Positions 52,137 to 63,580 of a stretch of 64,000 bases of DNA are shown one piece after another. Below the pieces are notes generated by a model, which did no database searches, had not been told where the DNA came from, and saw only the letters and a program-made list of their open reading frames with translations. Source of the DNA: Rhodoluna lacicola (GTDB lineage Bacteria > Actinomycetota > Actinomycetes > Actinomycetales > Microbacteriaceae); assembly GCF_000699505.1 (NCBI RefSeq), contig NZ_CP007490.1, positions 62,001 through 126,000 of the forward strand. The letters are read 5' to 3'. Position numbers and translations under genes: made by a program. Positions within the stretch are counted from its first letter, which is position 1. Every line of letters starts with the position of its first letter.

Positions 52137-52171
52137 ATAAGTGAATCTTCCCTTGCATTTAGGTGCGAGCC

Positions 52172-52197
52172 CCCGGTCGCCTGCGCGGCCGGGTTTT
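52172..52197 (+). terminator. Terminator-like hairpin in the leader of the NYN gene
   Basis: CCCGGTCGC, loop CTGC, GCGGCCGGG, then TTTT. It lies about 55 bases after the predicted transcription start and before the NYN start codon, so it either attenuates that gene or ends a small RNA. Confidence 0.6.
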
Positions 52198-52213
52198 CAC
52201 ATTAAGGCACAAA

Positions 52214-52846
52214 TTGCAAAAACGCGTAGTTGCTTTTATTGATGGTTTCAATGTTTACCACTCTGTTAACGAATTGGGTCCCAGGTCAAATTCGCTCAAG
52301 TGGCTGAATCTTTATTCTCTTGTTAGCGCTCTTATTCATCCCACCAAAGACACACTCGCAAGCGTTGAGTATTTTTCGGCCGAAGCGCATTGGAACACTA
52401 ATGAAAAGAGAAAAAGACATACGGATTACGTTGCAGCTTTGGAAATTTCCGGTGTAAGCACACACATTGGCTCATTTAAGTCGGTGAAGAGAAAGTGTAA
52501 GAAATGCCATAAAACTTACAAAACCTTTGAGGAAAACGGAACGGATGTAGCGATTGCTGCTGCAATGATTAAATTTGCCCACGAGGACAAGTTTGATAAA
52601 GCATTACTTTTTTCTGCAGATAGTGATTTGGTTCCTATCATTCGAAGTCTGCGAGCGAGTCATCCAGAAAAAGAAGTATTTATAGTCACGACGTCATCGA
52701 GGATCAGAAACGCTAAGGACTTGAGGAAGATTTCCAATGGATTCATTTCAATTGGAGCCAAAAATTTTGAGAGAAATCTTTTTGGATCTGAAATTTCAAA
52801 CGGCACACAGTCAGTCTTGAGGCCGAAATACTACGACCCTATTTAG
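52214..52846 (+). CDS. NYN-domain (PIN-like) putative ribonuclease
   Basis: A 210-residue protein with a NYN domain, a PIN-like metal-dependent RNase fold. The acidic sites are VVAFIDGFNVYH (about residue 6), GTDVAIAAAMI (about 115) and LLFSADSDLVPII (about 134). A CxxC pair KRKCKKCHKTYK near residue 97 may form a small zinc-binding loop. The TTG at 52214 is preferred over a GTG at 52163 since the latter precedes a terminator-like hairpin. Related LabA/NYN proteins lie in defence loci or act in RNA turnover; here it stands at the edge of a defence-like region. Confidence 0.82.
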   Translation: MQKRVVAFIDGFNVYHSVNELGPRSNSLKWLNLYSLVSALIHPTKDTLASVEYFSAEAHWNTNEKRKRHTDYVAALEISGVSTHIGSFKSVKRKCKKCHKTYKTFEENGTDVAIAAAMIKFAHEDKFDKALLFSADSDLVPIIRSLRASHPEKEVFIVTTSSRIRNAKDLRKISNGFISIGAKNFERNLFGSEISNGTQSVLRPKYYDPI

Positions 52847-54180: not shown

Positions 54181-55743
54181 GTGTCATCAGAAGCACAGCG
54201 CGCAGAGCTGCACAGAACCATCTGGAAGATCGCTAATGATCTTCGCGGCAGCGTCGACGGCTGGGACTTCAAGACCTACGTGCTTGGCATGCTCTTCTAT
54301 CGCTTTATCTCTGAGAACCTCTCCGGCTACCTAAACGAGCACCAGCGTCGCGCCGGCGAAAAGGATTTCGAGTATTCAAACCTCACCGATGACAAAGCCG
54401 AATTTGGCCGCAAAACCACAGTTGAGCAAAAAGGTTTCTTTATTTTGCCAAGCGAGCTTTTCGTCAATGTTCGAAAGAATGCTAAGAATGACTCGAACCT
54501 GAATGAAACCCTCTCACGCGTATTCGCCAACATTGAGGGCTCAGCAGTTGGCGCTGCTTCAGAAAATGATCTCAAAGGCCTCTTCGAAGACCTTGATGTA
54601 AATAGCAACAAACTCGGCCCAACAGTTATTAAGCGCAACGAAGTGCTCGTGAAGTTGCTTGATGCTATTGGAGATCTAGATTTCGGAAACTTCCAAGACA
54701 ACAAGATAGACGCCTTTGGAGACGCGTACGAATACCTAATGTCTATGTATGCCTCTAGCGCAGGTAAGTCAGGTGGAGAGTTCTTCACCCCCCAAGAGGT
54801 TTCCGAACTACTCGCCCGAATCACACTTATCGGCAAAAAGTCAGTAAACAAGGTTTACGACCCTGCCTGCGGCTCTGGTTCACTATTGCTCCAGTACGCA
54901 AAAGTCCTAGGCAAAGACAACGTTCGCGAGGGTTTCTACGGTCAAGAAATCAACCTGACCACATATAACCTCTGCCGTATCAACATGTTTCTGCACGATA
55001 TCAATTACGAAAAGTTTGATATCGCCCATGGTGACACTCTTACCGACCCACATCATTGGAATGACGAACCTTTTGAGGCCATCGTCTCCAACCCGCCTTA
55101 CTCCATCAATTGGGCTGGTGATTCAGACCCGCTCTTAATCAACGATGACCGCTTTGCTCCTGCAGGTGTGCTTGCCCCCAAGAGCAAGGCAGACCTTGCC
55201 TTCACATTGCATATGCTCCACTGGCTAGCAGTGAACGGAACAGCCGCAATCGTTGAGTTTCCGGGCGTTATGTACCGTGGCGGTGCCGAACAAAAAATAC
55301 GCAAGTACCTTGTTGATAACAACTACGTGGATGCAGTAATCCAGCTGCCGCAAGACCTATTCTTCGGAACTTCTATCGCCACCTGCATCTTGGTGTTGAA
55401 AAAGTCCAAGAAAGAAAACTCAACACTATTCGTGGATGCTTCTGCGTTATTTACTCGCTCACAGACCAAGAATCGTTTGACCTCTGAGCACATTGATCAG
55501 ATTCTGCAAACTGTTGATAATCGTTCTGACACCGACTACTTCTCGCGGCTCGTTGACAATCAGGATGTTGCCTTAAACGACTACAACCTTTCTGTTTCAA
55601 GCTATGTTTCAGCCGAGGATACTCGCGAAGTTATCGACATCCAGCTGTTGAACAAAGATATTGAAGGCATTGTTGCTCGTCAGGCTGAACTACGTAAACA
55701 AATCGATTTAATTGTTGCTGATTTAGAGGACCAGGAATTGTGA
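54181..55743 (+). CDS. hsdM: Type I restriction-modification system, DNA methyltransferase subunit
   Basis: A 520-residue HsdM. The N-terminal HsdM domain (about residues 1-150) opens [20 protein letters not shown]. The methylase core has the AdoMet site [17 protein letters not shown] (about residue 226) and the N6-adenine motif SNPPYSIN (about residue 304). It methylates adenine in the HsdS-specified site and is needed for both methylation and cleavage. The GTG start follows GGGGGCCAAAG. A small HEPN-motif gene follows with a 4-nt overlap (GTGA). The 243 bp upstream hold no gene, only an A/T-rich -10-like TATAAAT near 54156. Confidence 0.95.
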
Positions 55744-56228
55744 GCACATTCAATCCCGATCAAATTCGCAGTCAGACTCAGATAGCCTTGCCAAGCGATG
55801 ATCAATATCTCTACAGACTAGGGGTAGCTCTTTTCGGTTTTTCTTCTGTAACAAATTTTATGATCGAGGTAACCTGTTACTTGGATCCGACAGTTTCCAG
55901 AACTAACCTCCAAGAACGAATGTCAGGTGAAGTTCTCGATGCATTCAGGCATAGCGTGAAGATTGGAATTAAATCCTGGCCTCAGTTGAAAACCGTTGGT
56001 GTGCAAACTGCAGATGACTATGAAAAAGTAAATACAGAGAGATCTGATTTTGTACATGCATATCCAATTACTAGTGCCACCGGCCAACAAATTTTGCACC
56101 GGAGGCAAGACAATAAAGGCAAGTATTTTGAGGCCTCCGATGGTTTTCTAGATAACTTCATTAGACAGTTGGATCGGGTTTGTGTGGGGCTATACGAAAT
56201 TCGGGAAATAGCGAGGCCGATCCAATGA
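55740..56228 (+). CDS. HEPN-motif protein encoded between hsdM and hsdS
   Basis: A 162-residue, mainly helical protein. The stretch [13 protein letters not shown] (about residues 99-111) contains R-x4-H, the active-site signature of HEPN ribonucleases. The N-terminal helix [20 protein letters not shown] would supply the first HEPN helix. It is coupled at both ends: GTGA overlap with hsdM and ATGA overlap with hsdS. PrrC, a HEPN anticodon nuclease, is similarly embedded in the EcoprrI type I system, but this protein is much shorter and lacks the PrrC ATPase. Assignment rests on the motif and fold impression only. Confidence 0.65.
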
Positions 56229-57343
56229 GTCATCTTGGCGCATTAGTCAATTCCCTGTGTCCTGAAGGGGTAAAATTTCAGCCTCTCGAAGAACTAATCT
56301 CGTACGAGCAACCAACGAAGTATCTTGTAAATTCTGTGAATTATGATGACTCTTTCACAACGCCAGTACTGACAGCCGGCCAAACATTTATTTTGGGTTA
56401 TACGGATGAGCAGGGCGGCATATATTCTGCAAACCCCAACAGCCCAGTGATTATTTTTGACGACTTCACTACTGCTTTTAAGTGGGTTGATTTCCCTTTC
56501 AAAGCAAAATCATCTGCGATGAAAATGTTAACTTTAAAAAACGGAGAAATTTCATCACTTAGGTATGTTTATTTCGCTATGCGCTGCATCGGATATGCCC
56601 CCCAGGATCACGCAAGGCACTGGATTAGTCAATATTCTCAATTCCGTATACCGGTACCGCCACTCAAGGTTCAAGAAGAAATTGTGCGAATTCTTGACAC
56701 CTTTACAGAGCTAGAAGCAGAGCTAGAAGCAGAGCTAGAAGCCCGTAAAAAGCAATACGAACACTACCGAAACAAACTACTGTCAACGCAGCTTCCTTCA
56801 AGCGTTGAGTTCAAGACATTGGGCGAGTTACTAGGCCCCATAGCTCGCGGAAAGCGACTAACCAAGTCAAATTTGGCTGATGATGGTTCGATTCCTGTAT
56901 TCCACGGTGGTCTGAATCCAATTGGGTATCACGACGAATCGAATATGCCTGGGGAAACCGTAATGGTTATCAATACAGGTGCTTCATCAGGAAGAGTTGG
57001 GTGGTCGAGCGAACCATTTTGGTGTTCAGATGGTTGCTTTGCTCTTCCCCATTCCGATGAGATTTCATCGAGGTTCCTGTACCATTACGCGTCACTAAAA
57101 GAGCAATTTTTCACGGACAAAGTTAGAAAAGCAGGCATCCCAACCCTGGCCTCTGCTCCAATTCTCTCATTGCCAATCCCAGTATTACCATTGTCCAAAC
57201 AATTGGAGATTGTCGGAATTCTGGATGCATTTGTTGAACTAACATCAAATCTTTCAATGGGTCTACCTGCAGAGATTGAAGCGAGGCGCAAGCAATATGA
57301 GTGCTACCGCGAAAGGCTTTTCACCTTCAAGGAACTTGCCTAA
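56225..57343 (+). CDS. hsdS: Type I restriction-modification system, specificity subunit
   Basis: A 372-residue HsdS with two target-recognition domains (about residues 10-155 and 195-335), each followed by a conserved helical spacer: VPPLKVQEEIVRILDTFTEL near 155 and VLPLSKQLEIVGILDAFVEL near 320. The first spacer contains three tandem ELEA units before RKKQYEHYRNKLL, like the TAEL repeats of EcoR124I whose number sets the gap in the recognition site. The second spacer has AEIEARRKQYECYRERL. The ATG at 56225 overlaps the HEPN gene stop and hsdR starts in its stop codon (TAATG). Confidence 0.92.
   Translation: MSHLGALVNSLCPEGVKFQPLEELISYEQPTKYLVNSVNYDDSFTTPVLTAGQTFILGYTDEQGGIYSANPNSPVIIFDDFTTAFKWVDFPFKAKSSAMKMLTLKNGEISSLRYVYFAMRCIGYAPQDHARHWISQYSQFRIPVPPLKVQEEIVRILDTFTELEAELEAELEARKKQYEHYRNKLLSTQLPSSVEFKTLGELLGPIARGKRLTKSNLADDGSIPVFHGGLNPIGYHDESNMPGETVMVINTGASSGRVGWSSEPFWCSDGCFALPHSDEISSRFLYHYASLKEQFFTDKVRKAGIPTLASAPILSLPIPVLPLSKQLEIVGILDAFVELTSNLSMGLPAEIEARRKQYECYRERLFTFKELA
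56708..56743 (+). repeat. Three 12-bp tandem repeats in hsdS
   Basis: Three units of GAGCTAGAAGCA (the last ends in C) encoding ELEA. The unit length is a multiple of three, so slippage would change spacer length without breaking the frame. Confidence 0.9.
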
Positions 57344-60300
57344 TGAGCATCCCAAGAGTTGAGCCAATTGCTGTCACAAATGAAAGCACTGTAGTTGCCG
57401 AGTATCAAGCCGATACCCGCACAGAGCAGGCTTACCAATCTGAGGCTCAACTCGAAAAGGCTTTTATAGACCTCCTCCAAGGTCAAGCGTATGAGTACCT
57501 GCCAATCACAAATGAAACGGATTTGCTGGGTAATCTGCGGAATCAACTTCAACTTCTAAACAAAGTTGAGTTCACTGATTCAGAGTGGGATCGACTCTTC
57601 ACAGACAGCATTTCATCCGCCAACGATCGAATGATTGATAAGACCATTCGTATCCAAGAGGATTACATCCGAGTTCTCAAGCGTGACTCTGGTGAGACTA
57701 AAAACATTTATCTGATTGATAAGTCCAACATCCACAACAACCGCCTGCAGGTAATAAATCAGTATGAGGCTGAGGGAAATTATCAGAACCGATATGACGT
57801 AACAATTTTGGTCAACGGCCTTCCTATGGCGCATGTTGAATTGAAGCGTCGTGGAGTTGACCTGCGCGAGGCTTTCAACCAGATAAAGCGCTATCAGCGA
57901 GACAGCTTTTGGGCTGGCTCGGGTCTTTTTGAGTATGTTCAGCTTTTTGTGATCAGCAACGGAACCCTGACCAAGTACTACAGCAATACCGTGCGGGAAA
58001 CCCGTGTGAAAGAGTCAAACGGAAACGAGCGTACGAGGAAGACATCAAACAGTTTTGAGTTCACCAGTTGGTGGGCCGATGCCAACAACAAACCGATTTT
58101 GGACCTTATGTCTTTCGGTAAAACTTTCTTTGCCAAACACACGATTTTGAACATTCTTACCAGGTACTGCGTCTTTACTGAAGAGCAGCTTTTGCTGGTT
58201 ATGCGTCCATATCAAATCGTTGCAACTGAACGTATTTTGCAGCGAATTCTGGTTAGCGAAAATTCAAAAACTCTTGGTTCGTTGGCTGCTGGTGGATACA
58301 TTTGGCACACAACCGGATCTGGTAAAACCTTGACCAGCTTCAAGACAGCACAGTTGGCCAGTCAGATGCCATCGGTGGACAAAGTTTTATTTGTTGTGGA
58401 CCGTAAGGACCTGGACTTCCAGACGATGAAGGAATACGACAGATTCCAGAAGGGTGCGGCAAACTCAAGTGCCTCAACTGCTGAGTTGAAGAAGCACCTT
58501 GAGAACCCGGACTCGCGAATAGTTATCACGACTATTCAAAAGCTCAGCAAATTTATTGAAGGCAACAAAGACCACCCAATTCAACGCAAGCGCGTGGTTT
58601 TGATCTTTGATGAATGCCACCGTTCGCAGTTCGGTGATATGCATTCGTCAATTCGCAAAGCCTTCAAGAACTACAACCTTTTTGGTTTCACCGGAACTCC
58701 TATTTTTGCTGCAGGAGCGTCAACAGGCGGAAACCCAGACCTAAAAACTACCGAGCAGGCTTTTGGTGACAAGCTGCACACCTACACAATCGTTGATGCG
58801 ATTACTGACAAGAACGTATTGCCATTCCGCGTTGACTACGTGAACACAATGAAGACGGTTGAGTCATCCGCCGATAAGCAGGTATCTGCCATAGATACCG
58901 AAGCGGCACTACTTGCACCTGAACGTATCTCCAAAATTGTGAACTATATTCTGGAGCACTTTGACCAGAAAACTCGCCGGAACGAAAGTTACTCAATAGA
59001 CAAGAAGCGCGTGCAAGGCTTCAATTCGCTGATGGCAACGCAGTCAATCGCTGCCGCTAAGTCGTACTATCAAGAGTTCAAAAAGGCTCAGGCCGATTTG
59101 CCAGAGGCACAGCGACTCAAGATAGCCACGATCTTTAGCTTTGCGGCAAATGAGGCGGAATCTGATGGATTGATGCCCGAGGAAGGCTTTGAGGTAGACG
59201 CACTCGATGTTCCATCACGCGACTTCCTTGAATCAGCCATCTCTGACTACAACAAAATGTTTGGGACCAGTTTTAGCACAAGATCTGACAAGGATGGCGG
59301 CTTTGAAAACTACTACAAAGACTTAACAAAGAAATTGAAGTCTCGCGAACTGGACCTCGTTGTGGTCGTAAACATGTTCCTGACCGGTTTTGATGCCACA
59401 ACACTGAATACGCTTTGGGTTGATAAAAACCTGCGTCAGCACGGCTTGTTGCAGGCCTACTCTCGTACGAACAGAATCCTGAACTCAGTAAAGACCTACG
59501 GAAATATCGTTTGCTTTAGAGATCTTGAAAAGCAGACTCAAGAGGCGATTACTCTATTTGGCAACAAGGAAGCCGGCGGTATCGTGATTCTCAAGCCTTA
59601 CGGTGAGTATTACGAGGAGTACTCGGCTACCGTCTCTGAATTCCTGGCGCGCTTCGCGACAAACGAAGTACCAGTTTTAGAAGACGACAAAAAACTCTTT
59701 ATAAAACTTTTCAATGGGATTCTCCGACTCAAGAACATCCTTGTCTCGTTCGATGATTTCAAGGGCAACGAAATTCTCACTCAGGCACAGCAACAAGATT
59801 GCCAAAGTGTATATTTCGAGATCAAGCAGCAACTAATCCCTATGTGGCCAGAAAAAGACTCGATCGTTCAAGATGTCATTTTTGAACTTGAGCTAATCAA
59901 GCAAGTAGAAATCAACGTTGACTATATCCTCGATTTGATTCGCAAACTCAAAGACTCGGGTGCTGATCTGAATGCCGATAAAGAAATTAAGGCGTCCATT
60001 AGCCGTGCTGTCGACTCAAGTTCAGCTTTGAGAAGCAAAAAAGACTTAATCGAGAGATTTATCCAGTCAGTCAACATCGACGCGAACATCGATGACTCCT
60101 GGGTGCAGTTTCTAAAAGAGCAACGTGTCATTGAGCTCGAACAGCTGATTGAGGATGAAAACCTCGACCCGGCTTCGACTCATACCTTTGTTGACCAATC
60201 ATTTAAGAGCGGTTCGATCCAAACCTTTGGCACAGGTCTAGCTCGGCTTATGCCAGCAGTGAGTATCTTTTCGCCAGCGGGCGAGCATGAAGCGCAGCGC

Positions 60301-60360
60301 GGTCGTGTAATTGAAAAACTACAAAACTATTTTGAGCGTTTCTTCACCCTGGGAAGCTGA
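57343..60360 (+). CDS. hsdR: Type I restriction-modification system, restriction and translocase subunit
   Basis: A 1005-residue HsdR. The N-terminal PD-(D/E)xK nuclease region has GLPMAHVELKRRGVDL (about residues 158-173). The helicase motor follows with Walker A WHTTGSGKTLTSFK (about 321), DECH box LIFDECHRSQFGD (about 418), and FGFTGTPIFA. The middle and C-terminal parts match the EcoR124-type R subunit. It pulls DNA past the bound complex and cuts unmodified DNA. It starts in the stop codon of hsdS, so translation is coupled. Confidence 0.95.
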   Translation: MSIPRVEPIAVTNESTVVAEYQADTRTEQAYQSEAQLEKAFIDLLQGQAYEYLPITNETDLLGNLRNQLQLLNKVEFTDSEWDRLFTDSISSANDRMIDKTIRIQEDYIRVLKRDSGETKNIYLIDKSNIHNNRLQVINQYEAEGNYQNRYDVTILVNGLPMAHVELKRRGVDLREAFNQIKRYQRDSFWAGSGLFEYVQLFVISNGTLTKYYSNTVRETRVKESNGNERTRKTSNSFEFTSWWADANNKPILDLMSFGKTFFAKHTILNILTRYCVFTEEQLLLVMRPYQIVATERILQRILVSENSKTLGSLAAGGYIWHTTGSGKTLTSFKTAQLASQMPSVDKVLFVVDRKDLDFQTMKEYDRFQKGAANSSASTAELKKHLENPDSRIVITTIQKLSKFIEGNKDHPIQRKRVVLIFDECHRSQFGDMHSSIRKAFKNYNLFGFTGTPIFAAGASTGGNPDLKTTEQAFGDKLHTYTIVDAITDKNVLPFRVDYVNTMKTVESSADKQVSAIDTEAALLAPERISKIVNYILEHFDQKTRRNESYSIDKKRVQGFNSLMATQSIAAAKSYYQEFKKAQADLPEAQRLKIATIFSFAANEAESDGLMPEEGFEVDALDVPSRDFLESAISDYNKMFGTSFSTRSDKDGGFENYYKDLTKKLKSRELDLVVVVNMFLTGFDATTLNTLWVDKNLRQHGLLQAYSRTNRILNSVKTYGNIVCFRDLEKQTQEAITLFGNKEAGGIVILKPYGEYYEEYSATVSEFLARFATNEVPVLEDDKKLFIKLFNGILRLKNILVSFDDFKGNEILTQAQQQDCQSVYFEIKQQLIPMWPEKDSIVQDVIFELELIKQVEINVDYILDLIRKLKDSGADLNADKEIKASISRAVDSSSALRSKKDLIERFIQSVNIDANIDDSWVQFLKEQRVIELEQLIEDENLDPASTHTFVDQSFKSGSIQTFGTGLARLMPAVSIFSPAGEHEAQRGRVIEKLQNYFERFFTLGS

Positions 60361-60373
60361 GGTGAATTTGCAA

Positions 60374-60904
60374 ATGTCAAAATTCAATGACTCTTTGAGG
60401 CCCAAAAAATTTCAACTTGGCCTCGATGTTGAGCAGTTGCGAATGGTGGGCGAAATAGTTCTCCTAGCAAGTTCCCTTGAATGGTTGATCGCTAAAGCAT
60501 CGCAGATTGATTTCTACTCGAGTAAGTCCCATTCGCCTGTTGATTACGGGCAACAGAGGGTCGCCATTTTTAAAGCATTGAATATGAAATTGAAAGATTT
60601 TGAAGAAAATTCCCGGTTACATAAACTCACAAACTGGAGACAGTTGTCAGGTGACATGAAGAGACTTCTAGATGTGCGTGACACCGTGGTACACGGTTCA
60701 ATCGATCACAGCAACCCGAATTTTTTTCAGTTCATTAATGTGAAGGACGGCACTTCCGTGTCAGCAGAAATAACGAGCCTCGAGCACCTAAAGAATGAAA
60801 TTTACGCCAAGGTAGAGCTTTTGGTAACTATTTGTGAAGTGCTTCAAAAACACGACACGGACTCGGGCGAGTGGGCGGTATACGCCACGAAGAATAAGAA
60901 ATAG
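60374..60904 (+). CDS. HEPN-motif protein downstream of hsdR
   Basis: A 176-residue helical protein. LLDVRDTVVHGSIDH (about residues 100-114) carries R-x4-H in the exact RDxxxHG context of HEPN proteins. Helix VGEIVLLASSLEWLIAKASQ (about residues 25-44) is typical of the first HEPN helix. It differs in sequence from the HEPN-motif gene between hsdM and hsdS. The ATG at 60374 has GAGGTG nine bases before it; a GTG at 60362 is an alternative. It lies 13 bp after hsdR in the same operon. A role as an RNase or as an adaptor is inferred from family only. Confidence 0.65.
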   Translation: MSKFNDSLRPKKFQLGLDVEQLRMVGEIVLLASSLEWLIAKASQIDFYSSKSHSPVDYGQQRVAIFKALNMKLKDFEENSRLHKLTNWRQLSGDMKRLLDVRDTVVHGSIDHSNPNFFQFINVKDGTSVSAEITSLEHLKNEIYAKVELLVTICEVLQKHDTDSGEWAVYATKNKK

Positions 60905-60915
60905 CTGAGAGAGAG

Positions 60916-61138
60916 CTAGCCAAAAAGCTCAGGCAAAGTAGCCTCGTGAGCACCACGCAGATCATTCAGCTGCCAGGTTGCAACATCCTGAATCTCTAGC
61001 TCGCCCGAGTTATCGGTGACACCAATGCGCAACACCGGAATACCGCGTGCCTCGCATAGACCAACAAACTTCACGTCATCTTCACGACCAACCGATACCA
61101 ACACGCGACCAGTTGACTCTGAGAACAGAGCACAAGCT
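60916..61138 (-). pseudogene. purL: purL 3' fragment 1 (phosphoribosylformylglycinamidine synthase C-terminus)
   Basis: Reads, on the minus strand, ACALFSESTGRVLVSVGRED, then CEARGIPVLRIGVTD and HEATLPELFG with a stop codon. This is the last about 74 residues of an actinobacterial PurL glutaminase-independent synthase. The reading frame is intact but has no 5' part; homology stops at about 61138. No full purL is in the window. A second, more decayed copy lies at 63490-63580. Confidence 0.8.
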
Positions 61139-61264
61139 TGTTAAACGCCAGGGGAGTGTTTAAAACTACTTTTTGACACGGCACGGTCCTCAAGGCCCGC
61201 ATCAGGCAAGTGATAAAATCGAACACGTGTTCGAGTAATAGTTACATAAATCCGTTAATTACTA

Positions 61265-61300: not shown

Positions 61301-62410
61301 ATGAATAGCGAAGCATCTAAGAACATCTCCCCTCTCGAGCGAGACGAGGAAATCTTCACGCGCGTTGCAGAGAAAATCAGGGCAGCTATCCCAAAAGACT
61401 TTAATGTGCAGATGAGTGCTTTGATTCAACCGTTACTCAAAGATAGAAATCTTGATGCGATTCTGGAGATTAAGATCCCTAACATTCCACCTGTGGAATT
61501 CGCCACAGAAGTCAAGAGGATACTGAACAGACCTCAAATGTTGGCGGCATTGGACCAGCTAAGTCGTATCACAAATGACAACTACAACAAACTCGTAGCG
61601 GCCAAATATATCCCCGAGCCAATCCAAAATGAACTAAAAGACAGAGGTGTTTCGTTTGCGGATGCCACCGGTAATGTATCTATAAATCTACAAAATCCAC
61701 TAATGGTTATTAACTCTCGCGGTGCGACTACCGACCCATGGAAAGGTCCGGGAAGACCAACGCAATCATTAAAGGGAGTGCCGGCGGGGCAAATAGTGAG
61801 AACATTGTGTGACTACGGTTCACCAATAAAAATCCAGAAACTAATAATTGAATCAGGCGCGTCTAGAGGTTCGGCGTATCGCATGATTGATTTTCTGACG
61901 GCAAACAAATTTGCCACCAAGCAAGTTGGATCCCAGGTTTCTGTAAATGATTGTAAGCAACTATTACTTGCGTGGAGCAAGGAAGTAGATGTTTTTGGCA
62001 GCGGTGTTACTAAAAGCTACATAAATCCGCGGGGACTCAATGAATTGCAGTCGAAATTAGCAGAGATTGATTCAAGGAAATATGTACTTACAGGTTCGTT
62101 AGCCGCAGAAAAGTATTATGCATACGCCGACCCGTTTACCGCAATGATCTACACAACAAATATTGATGAGCTGGCATTGGAGCTCGGTTTCCTGGAGACG
62201 AATAAAGGCGCGAACGTGATTCTATCTTCACCTAATACTCCAGTAGTTTTTGATCGTACCTCGATCTATAAGGGTATGAATATTGCGGCACCTTCACAAA
62301 TAGCCGTGGATCTCCTCGGGGGACCTGGAAGAAATCCCGAAGAAGGAAAGACGTTATTAGATTGGATGGAGGCTAACGAAAATGTTTGGCGAATCAAACC
62401 TGATAATTGA
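61301..62410 (+). CDS. AbiEi-like antitoxin/transcriptional regulator
   Basis: A 369-residue protein. Residues about 165-215 form a winged helix (GQIVRTLCDYGSPIKIQKLI and SRGSAYRMIDFLTANKFATK). The C-terminal half contains VLTGSLAAEKYYAYADPF, as in AbiEi-like proteins, where this domain contacts the partner. In AbiE systems the antitoxin represses its own promoter and counters a nucleotidyltransferase toxin. The following gene overlaps by 29 nt and encodes such a nucleotidyltransferase. The N-terminal about 160 residues are an extension I do not recognise. Confidence 0.7.
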   Translation: MNSEASKNISPLERDEEIFTRVAEKIRAAIPKDFNVQMSALIQPLLKDRNLDAILEIKIPNIPPVEFATEVKRILNRPQMLAALDQLSRITNDNYNKLVAAKYIPEPIQNELKDRGVSFADATGNVSINLQNPLMVINSRGATTDPWKGPGRPTQSLKGVPAGQIVRTLCDYGSPIKIQKLIIESGASRGSAYRMIDFLTANKFATKQVGSQVSVNDCKQLLLAWSKEVDVFGSGVTKSYINPRGLNELQSKLAEIDSRKYVLTGSLAAEKYYAYADPFTAMIYTTNIDELALELGFLETNKGANVILSSPNTPVVFDRTSIYKGMNIAAPSQIAVDLLGGPGRNPEEGKTLLDWMEANENVWRIKPDN

Positions 62411-63242
62411 AGCGCGTGAAGCACTCATTGATGCAGTTGAAGCCTTAGGTACGCAAGCCAAGTCTCTGATTCTGGTAGGGGCACAGGCTATTTATCTTCA
62501 CACTGATCAATTAGAACTTGTCGTTGCCCCCGCAACTAAAGACAGTGACTTCGCCATAGATTCGCGAAGCCTGGACGACGATCCCGTTCTCGAGGAAAAA
62601 CTTTCAGCCGCAGGGTTTATGAGGGACCCAATTTCAAGAAACCCAGGAGCGTGGATAAATGTTAAAGGAATCCCTGTTGACTTCATGGTCCCTGCCAAAT
62701 TAGTTTCGACAAAAAGTAGACGGTCTGCAAATCTAAACCCTCACGCGGATTATGTAGCAAGGAAAACCGAGGGTCTTGAGGCTGCCCTACTAGATAACGA
62801 TGTTCGTGAAATCAAATCATTCAGTCCATTATCAAGCAGGAGCTGCAGGGTGGCAGTAGCTGGACCTGCTGCTTTGCTAGTAGCAAAACTGATAAAAGTC
62901 GGAGAACGGATAGATCAATCAAGAATTAGTTCAGACAAAGACTCATACGACATCTTTAGGATCTTCGAGGTAGTTGATATTGCCAACCTTGTTTCAAAGT
63001 TTGTTGAATTTTCAGAAAACGAGTTAACAGAAGTTGTTGTTGGAAAAGCTTTAGAAGTTCTTGCTTTGCATTTTGCATCTTCACAGGAAGCATATGGACC
63101 AGCGTCTGCTGGTCGTGTGGAGTATGGAATTGGCAATCCAGACGAGATATCAGCAAGATTGTGGGCGTATTCCGTACAGTTTTTACAAATCCTAGAAAAA
63201 AATAGTTCAGCAACATCTGGTGTGACACGGGATTCAAAATAG
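62382..63242 (+). CDS. AbiEii-like nucleotidyltransferase (putative toxin)
   Basis: A 286-residue protein. The nucleotidyltransferase core is near the N-terminus: LILVGAQAIYLHTDQ (the G-x-x-A/x helix) followed by ATKDSDFAID with the D-x-D-like metal pair (SDFAID), then GIPVDFMVPAKL with the third acidic residue. AbiEii toxins are GTP-dependent nucleotidyltransferases, later members pyrimidinylate tRNA. GGAGG lies nine bases before the ATG, inside the end of the upstream gene. A hairpin (63243-63269) follows the stop codon. Confidence 0.7.
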   Translation: MFGESNLIIEAREALIDAVEALGTQAKSLILVGAQAIYLHTDQLELVVAPATKDSDFAIDSRSLDDDPVLEEKLSAAGFMRDPISRNPGAWINVKGIPVDFMVPAKLVSTKSRRSANLNPHADYVARKTEGLEAALLDNDVREIKSFSPLSSRSCRVAVAGPAALLVAKLIKVGERIDQSRISSDKDSYDIFRIFEVVDIANLVSKFVEFSENELTEVVVGKALEVLALHFASSQEAYGPASAGRVEYGIGNPDEISARLWAYSVQFLQILEKNSSATSGVTRDSK

Positions 63243-63443: not shown

Positions 63444-63489
63444 TATTCACTTTAAGGCATGAGTAGCCTACGTTTTGACATATTTGACA

Positions 63490-63580
63490 GTTAGCCAAAA
63501 GCTCAGGTCAAGTAGCTTCGTGAACACCACGCAGATCATTTAGTTACCAGGCTGCAACATCCCGAATCTCGAGCTCGTCA
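63490..63580 (-). pseudogene. purL 3' fragment 2, degenerate
   Basis: About 90 bases matching 60915-61008 (purL 3' end) in the same orientation, with one base lost in the stop-proximal A-run (frame broken) and scattered substitutions. Together with fragment 1 it brackets the AbiE-like pair as a direct repeat about 2.6 kb apart. Confidence 0.75.

What the first reader, a model, noticed from the sequence alone, without database searches (positions are those of the whole stretch)
54181..60904. Type I RM operon carrying two different HEPN-motif genes
Order is hsdM, HEPN-1, hsdS, hsdR, HEPN-2, with overlaps GTGA, ATGA and TAATG and a 13-bp gap: one translationally coupled five-gene unit. Both extra proteins have the R-x4-H signature (RSDFVH and RDTVVH) in mainly helical proteins of 160-180 residues. 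A HEPN RNase inside a type I RM operon is known from PrrC in EcoprrI, kept silent by the RM complex and released when a phage blocks restriction. Here the proteins are small, lack an ATPase and there are two, so this may be a different RM-guarded RNA-cleavage defence, or a two-part HEPN complex.
Basis: partly seen in the sequence, partly recalled or inferred. Interest (0 to 1): 0.8.

Follow-up and report, generated by a model that had tools for sequence, protein, structure and literature searches.

The report
HEPN-like genes inside restriction operon
A bacterial DNA-cutting defence operon carries two extra small genes, one of which probably belongs to a known group of RNA-cutting proteins, so the operon may pair DNA restriction with an RNA-cutting back-up; it is an unusual example of a pairing already described for other proteins.

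Summary
X is probably a HEPN-superfamily protein: R101 and H106 are invariant in 11 of 11 aligned sequences, and 5 of 10 relatives, not X itself, match Pfam HEPN families over the motif (best E 1.2e-5), though always below Pfam's cut-offs. Y is unproven: no relative was found, its motif arises in about 21% of shuffles, and its best hint is one fragment's match to a HEPN family at E 0.11. None of X's 10 relatives examined lies in a type I operon within the DNA seen. None of the 80 best hsdM loci returned carries a recognisable X or Y; their extra genes include RhuM, Fic, Mrr, GmrSD and, in two, PrrC-like genes. The other 66 genomes searched in the genus (many incomplete) have no close HsdR. Best reading: an acquired restriction operon captured a HEPN RNase as a second, abortive layer; silencing by HsdMSR is untested. 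HEPN genes linked to restriction systems were described in 2013, so this is a new member of a known kind.

The parts
54181..55743 (+). hsdM, type IC-like N6-adenine methyltransferase subunit, 520 aa, DPACG and NPPY present
55740..56228 (+). X (HEPN-1), 162 aa, probable HEPN-superfamily protein, R101-x4-H106
56225..57343 (+). hsdS, specificity subunit, 372 aa, with an AELEAELEAEL spacer repeat
57343..60360 (+). hsdR, type I restriction/translocase subunit with EcoR124_C domain, 1005 aa
60374..60904 (+). Y (HEPN-2 candidate), 176 aa, R102-x4-H107; HEPN membership unproven
60908..61150 (-). displaced copy of the purL 3' end, 95% identical to the end of the intact purL just outside the window (context, not part of the operon)

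Best explanation
A horizontally acquired type IC restriction-modification operon has taken up a small stand-alone HEPN ribonuclease gene (X) between hsdM and hsdS and a second small gene (Y, possibly also HEPN) after hsdR. HsdMSR methylates host DNA and cuts unmodified phage DNA (inferred from intact, well-matched subunits). X, made in step with HsdM and HsdS through 4-base overlaps, is a latent metal-independent endoribonuclease (inferred from its family) that acts as a second, abortive or dormancy-inducing layer when infection is not stopped at the DNA level. Whether X is silenced by HsdMSR as PrrC is, or senses infection itself, is not shown; its relatives live without a type I neighbour in the DNA seen, so self-contained sensing is at least as likely. 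Y is either a second RNase or an accessory or regulator.
For: Junctions GTGA, ATGA, TAATG. R101 and H106 among the 11 invariant columns of 11 sequences. 5 of 10 relatives match one or more of five Pfam HEPN families at E<=1: P0002 RiboL-PSP 1.8e-4; L090 RiboL-PSP 0.016 and Apea 0.034; L091 RiboL-PSP 1.2e-5 plus Apea, Cthe2314, Swt1 and DUF4145; L092 likewise, 3.6e-5; L093 Apea 0.066. PADLOC: 6 of 10 members match DUF3644 (best 7.9e-5) and 4 a CARF-HEPN model. X's low-confidence model puts the motif at the end of a helix before a hairpin and a last helix. X GC3 0.40 against hsdM 0.54 and hsdR 0.52, though hsdS is also low, 0.41. The Aquiluna MAG with the best HsdM match (79%) is M-S-R with a direct TGATG junction. 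Relatives carry other effectors in these slots, with PrrC-like genes between hsdS and hsdR in L052 and L086. A full-length close HsdR occurs in 1 of 67 genomes of the genus.
Against: No activity data. X itself and its nearest relative L087 match no HEPN model; every HEPN match of the relatives is below Pfam's curated cut-off (best 25.7 of 28.4 bits), L091 and L092 are 94% identical, and L090's best hit is a non-HEPN coiled-coil family, SOAR (2.4e-4). NCBIfam gave no HEPN family. X has S, not the typical N/D/H, after the motif arginine. Models are poor (pLDDT 48.7, 46.6) and PDB fold searches gave nothing at E<=0.001. Two weak promoter-like sites near the end of hsdM (55493, 55634) could serve X, though the region has fewer such sites than shuffles.
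Confidence: 0.47

Rival explanations
1. X (and Y) are independent passenger genes: mobile defence genes that use the hsd operon only for expression, with no physical or regulatory tie to HsdMSR.
For: X relatives are stand-alone on plasmids, a phage-collection contig and a viral contig, beside ardC, type II restriction, toxin-antitoxin, ATPase/helicase or kinase/phosphatase genes. The extra-gene slots of related hsd operons hold many unrelated families. No X or Y in the 80 best hsdM loci.
Against: Four-base overlaps on both sides of X tie its dose to HsdM and HsdS. The slots in relatives often hold nuclease or toxin-like families, including PrrC-like genes, and PrrC is known to be held by HsdMSR (PMC2610378, PMC3874165, passages).
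Confidence: 0.35
2. PrrC-like guard (a sub-case of the best explanation): HsdMSR holds X, or an X-Y pair, inactive and an anti-restriction protein releases it.
For: EcoprrI/PrrC precedent in a type IC system (PMC3874165, PMC2610378, passages); PrrC-like genes in two relatives of this operon; X relatives beside the anti-restriction gene ardC in 3 of 10 aligned loci and in L094, not aligned.
Against: X has no ATPase and no detected similarity to PrrC. X relatives occur without a type I neighbour in the DNA seen. The ardC linkage is within one set of related Lactococcus plasmids.
Confidence: 0.25
3. X and Y form a toxin-antitoxin pair or a two-part HEPN complex.
For: Both are small, in one operon, each with R-x4-H; one Y fragment weakly matches a HEPN family that X relatives also match (E 0.11); hhalign sets the two motifs in register.
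Against: The X-Y hhalign score is reached by 21 of 150 shuffles of Y and 14 of 150 unrelated ORFs. The genes are separated by hsdS and hsdR. No Y relative was found, so no X relative can be shown to have one beside it.
Confidence: 0.1
4. Y is not HEPN but an unrelated helical orphan protein.
For: No relative beyond the window's own in samples of 299, 296, 249 and 198 genomes, which may overlap (two hits fall in unrelated membrane-protein genes); none in phages or viral contigs; in plasmids only a 21-residue match at E 0.6. PDB sequences gave four weak non-HEPN hits (best 0.062). Motif expected in 21% of shuffles.
Against: Of three versions of Y scanned against Pfam, the fragment's only reported family is a HEPN family, over residues 61-111, which hold the motif; the low-confidence model puts the motif at the end of the helix 88-107.
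Confidence: 0.45

Closest known systems
EcoprrI-PrrC (type IC R-M with latent anticodon nuclease)
   Same: Type IC-like hsd operon with an embedded putative RNase gene; PrrC-like genes occur in two relatives of this operon.
   Different: X is 162 aa, has no ATPase, lies between hsdM and hsdS and shows no detected similarity to PrrC; a second extra gene follows hsdR.
R-M-linked HEPN families (at least 16 clades, Anantharaman et al. 2013, PMC3710099)
   Same: HEPN proteins encoded in or beside R-M operons, proposed there to act as a PrrC-like second layer; some are solo domains.
   Different: X matches no Pfam HEPN model itself; two HEPN-motif genes in one type I operon, an arrangement I did not see in the passages read.
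HEPN_RiboL-PSP family (PF18735)
   Same: 4 of 10 X-family members match it (best 1.2e-5); a Y fragment has it as its only hit at E 0.11.
   Different: All matches are below the family's cut-off; X itself does not match; no L-PSP domain or ParB neighbour seen here.
rlo genes (restriction-linked ORFs within Campylobacter type I loci; told in PMC2610378, passage)
   Same: Variable extra genes inserted within hsd loci.
   Different: rloC is an ATPase-nuclease related to PrrC; X is a small solo protein.

Membership tests
HEPN superfamily (X) | R-x4-6-H motif conserved in the family | tested here: met
   invariant in 11 of 11 aligned sequences
HEPN superfamily (X) | polar N, D or H typically after the motif arginine | tested here: inconclusive
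   N in 9 of 11; S (polar, atypical) in X and L087
HEPN superfamily (X) | sequence match to known HEPN families | tested here: inconclusive
   none for X or L087; 5 of 10 relatives match HEPN families over the motif, best 1.2e-5, all below Pfam cut-offs; NCBIfam none; PADLOC DUF3644 in 6 of 10, best 7.9e-5
HEPN superfamily (X) | four-helix fold | tested here: inconclusive
   model pLDDT 48.7, N-terminal half modelled as strands at low confidence; no PDB match at E<=0.001
HEPN superfamily (Y) | R-x4-H conserved in the family | tested here: inconclusive
   motif present, no relatives found to test conservation
HEPN superfamily (Y) | sequence match to known HEPN families | tested here: inconclusive
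   PF18735 at E 0.11, 12.8 of 28.4 bits, for one fragment; none for the whole protein
Type IC R-M system | intact HsdM, HsdS and HsdR with EcoR124-type HsdR C-terminus | tested here: met
PrrC | ABC ATPase and R-x3-E-x31-H nuclease triad in one protein | tested here: not met
   X and Y are 162 and 176 aa with no ATPase match
PrrC-like mechanism | RNase held silent by HsdMSR and released by anti-restriction factors | not testable with these tools
   needs experiment
Dedicated type I R-M-linked HEPN clade | family recurrently found in type I loci | tested here: not met
   0 of 10 X relatives in type I loci in the DNA seen; L091, and L094 (not aligned), lie beside an AlwI-family restriction gene

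The most novel reading that the evidence does not exclude
A type I R-M operon that guards two different HEPN RNases at once, one dosed with HsdM/HsdS and one with HsdR, so that loss of either the methylase core or the motor subunit releases a distinct RNA-cleaving response.
Probability: 0.08. Interest if true: 0.7.

Novelty: new member of a known kind. Interest (0 to 1): 0.37.

Why it matters
It offers a compact, ATPase-free case in which to test whether a type I enzyme can hold an RNase in check without PrrC's ABC domain. It also suggests that positions within and after the hsd operon of one widely spread type IC lineage act as interchangeable slots for toxin-like and nuclease genes. The X family, named 'selenium binding protein' in several plasmid records, looks like a HEPN family that deserves a proper name.

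Tried and rejected
X and Y against Pfam, NCBIfam, PADLOC and PHROGs at E<=1: X only HTH_Tnp_Tc5 0.13; Y only two PHROGs of unknown function (0.069, 0.1). PDB sequence searches: X none, Y four weak hits, X profile two weak hits to a designed protein (0.018) and troponin (0.69). Structure prediction was poor (one and two sequences) and PDB fold searches gave no match at E<=0.001. Y against the X profile: no better than shuffles or unrelated ORFs. Viral-contig scans with X, Y, X+L087 and L087 found no relative; the scan with L089 found L095. X in 396 genomes of the phylum: own plus one weak; profile A1 in 22 genomes behind hsdM loci: none, in 321 of another class: one weak match with a stop. L087's gene in E. 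coli genomes: none. X as a fixed part of this hsd lineage was rejected.

Paper searches bearing on novelty: 1 paper; 67, 20 listed; none; 9; 19, 15 listed; 7; 30, 12 listed; on purL islands (28, 10 listed) and on pMRC01 (6) were listings only. I saw the outline with abstract, section 6 and passages of PMC3710099, and passages of PMC3874165, PMC11077055, PMC12839542 and PMC2610378; the rest were listings. Two HEPN genes in one type I operon were not seen in these, but most subscription journals are not held.

Limits of the hsdM survey: one search kept the best 80 of 531 relatives found from six peptide patterns; flanks vary and some contigs end early (hsdS recognised in 73 and hsdR in 70 of 80). 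Genes were picked mechanically, plus strand, 75 aa or more. Of 56 'in' ORFs I scanned 52 (left out: a duplicate contig, an 82-aa HsdS piece, two from a locus with another gene order); of 63 'after' ORFs 54 (left out by eye: eight short ones and one cut by the contig end); one ORF with masked bases was dropped by the script. Searches list only 25 of 45 and 25 of 83 families, so rare HEPN matches there could be unseen.
Full report
Observation. The operon is as described: hsdM 54181-55743, X 55740-56228, hsdS 56225-57343, hsdR 57343-60360, Y 60374-60904, with GTGA, ATGA and TAATG junctions and a 13-base gap before Y; all frames are open. HsdM, HsdS and HsdR match their families strongly and HsdR has an EcoR124_C domain, so this looks like a type IC system. 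DPACG and NPPY in HsdM, DECH and TGTP in HsdR and an AELEAELEAEL repeat in HsdS are present; the HsdR Walker motif GSGKT was read by eye. Promoter-like and terminator-like sites are not above shuffles (4 against a mean of 9.2; 6 against 7.5), but two promoter-like sites lie in hsdM at 55493 and 55634, so X could have its own start.

X. X has no meaningful family hit. Relatives: L087 (human-faeces contig in the phage collection, 49% over 95%), G249, Rhodococcus and Latilactobacillus plasmids, Mammaliicoccus, Psychrobacter and Lactococcus plasmids, and viral contig L095. Apart from L087 they are 21-26% identical to X; identities among all 11 run from 18 to 64% outside the Lactococcus trio (78-94%). 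Eleven columns are invariant, among them R101 and H106. Scanned singly, 5 of 10 relatives match Pfam HEPN families: P0002, L090, L091, L092 and L093. The best is HEPN_RiboL-PSP with L091, 1.2e-5, 25.7 bits against a cut-off of 28.4; L091 and L092 match five different HEPN families, each stretch spanning the motif. Against this: all are below cut-offs; L087, P0001, P0003, L089 and L095 match no HEPN family; some unrelated families score too (SOAR 2.4e-4 with L090, FAM186A-B_N 0.013 with L089, MAPKK1_Int 0.023 with L092). NCBIfam gave no HEPN family; PADLOC gave DUF3644 in 6 of 10 members, best 7.9e-5, and a CARF-HEPN model in 4. DUF3644 overlaps a HEPN family according to PMC3710099 (passage). 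I put HEPN membership of X at about 0.85 and RNase activity at about 0.7.

Y. No relative was found: genome samples of 299, 296, 249 and 198, possibly overlapping, gave only the window itself and two hits inside unrelated membrane-protein genes; phages and viral contigs gave none; plasmids gave one 21-residue match at E 0.6. Of three versions scanned against Pfam (180 aa; 176 aa and the fragment 60410-60730), only the fragment had a hit, HEPN_RiboL-PSP at E 0.11 over residues 61-111, which include R102-H107. hhalign against the X profile sets the motifs in register but at chance level. I give HEPN membership of Y about 0.5.

Contexts of X relatives. In the DNA seen, none of the 10 aligned relatives lies in a type I operon. 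That DNA ranges from 1.5 kb a side (L002) through 5-7 kb for most; L095 ends 42 bases after the gene, L002, L087 and L095 were read by eye from ORF translations, and the plasmid gene tables are incomplete. L087 lies near an ATPase/helicase gene pair that resembles GajA-GajB (recalled, not tested). In L091, as in L094 (not aligned), the gene follows an AlwI-family restriction gene; in L091-L093, and L094, it faces ardC. L090 has a RelB/YafQ pair upstream; L095 a kinase-like and a phosphatase-like gene. X thus belongs to a mobile, mostly stand-alone family.

The hsd lineage. The 80 best hsdM loci kept (72-79% best-segment identity, many phyla) hold no X or Y by phmmer at E 1e-3. Extra genes are common. 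Of 52 scanned from within the operons, 19 match RhuM, 5 DUF4357, 4 Fic, 2 Mrr, 2 YhcG, 1 PIN and 1 GmrSD, with no HEPN family among the 25 of 45 families shown. Of 54 scanned after hsdR, 2 match DUF3644 and several match AAA or SMC ATPases (25 of 83 families shown). In L052 and L086 the gene between hsdS and hsdR is 377 and 388 aa, with R-x3-E-x31-H ending in SH, the spacing given for PrrC (R320, E324, H356) in PMC2610378, and with P-loops AFNSTGKT and AFNGVGKT (motif reading, no family model named the two). So this lineage can carry PrrC-like effectors in a neighbouring slot. The Aquiluna MAG L007, the best HsdM match, has neither X nor Y, and its hsdM and hsdS meet at TGATG.

Recent arrival. 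A close full-length HsdR was found in 1 of 67 genomes of the genus, the window's own; three others gave weak partial matches (29-36%), and only 22 of the 67 are at least 90% complete with at most 5% contamination. The operon is followed by a 243-base copy of the purL 3' end (95%); a partial copy lies at 63486-63577, and the intact purL lies just outside the window at 65359-67671 in window numbering. Of 18 stretches fetched from relatives, nearly all next to purL, 17 had ORFs and none of these had a window hsd gene, X or Y as best match; gene lengths vary by eye, with some recurring genes.

Mechanism. Shown: intact hsd genes, overlapping reading frames, family-wide R-x4-H in X. Inferred: X is HEPN and cuts RNA; it acts as a second layer; its dose follows HsdM/HsdS. 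Not shown: silencing by HsdMSR, any role of Y. The published model for R-M-linked HEPN proteins (PMC3710099) predicts release when the R-M system is neutralised. X fits it by position, while its relatives outside type I loci suggest that it does not depend on it.

Verdict. A genuine, rather unusual member of a published kind. The two-HEPN claim rests on Y, which is unproven. The confidences given overlap and do not sum to one.

Noticed in passing
window 60908-61150 and 63486-63577; intact purL at 65359-67671 in window numbering, outside the window: Displaced purL 3'-end copies separate blocks of defence-like genes. Extra purL 3'-end pieces also appear in G1542, G1522 and G1517. It looks like a serial insertion hotspot at the purL 3' end.
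   Followed up: partly
window 61301-63242: Two overlapping genes: one weakly like AbiEi antitoxins (PF09952 E 0.01, below cut-off), the other NTP_transf_8 (2.6e-10); possibly a type IV toxin-antitoxin pair.
   Followed up: no
window 52163-52846: NYN-domain gene (scanned from 52211) matching PADLOC candidate HEC-09 at 2.2e-50.
   Followed up: no
L095:2803-4726: An X-family gene after a Ser/Thr kinase-like and a PP2C phosphatase-like gene on a viral contig (read by eye); possibly a three-gene system.
   Followed up: no
L052:9550-10683 and L086:6381-7547: PrrC-like proteins, by length, position and motif spacing, between hsdS and hsdR in a Moranbacteria and a Victivallis MAG.
   Followed up: partly
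L006:6001-6153: An unannotated stretch of about 51 codons, 46% identical to residues 18-69 of X (E 1e-6), on a Pseudomonas aeruginosa plasmid; probably a gene remnant.
   Followed up: no
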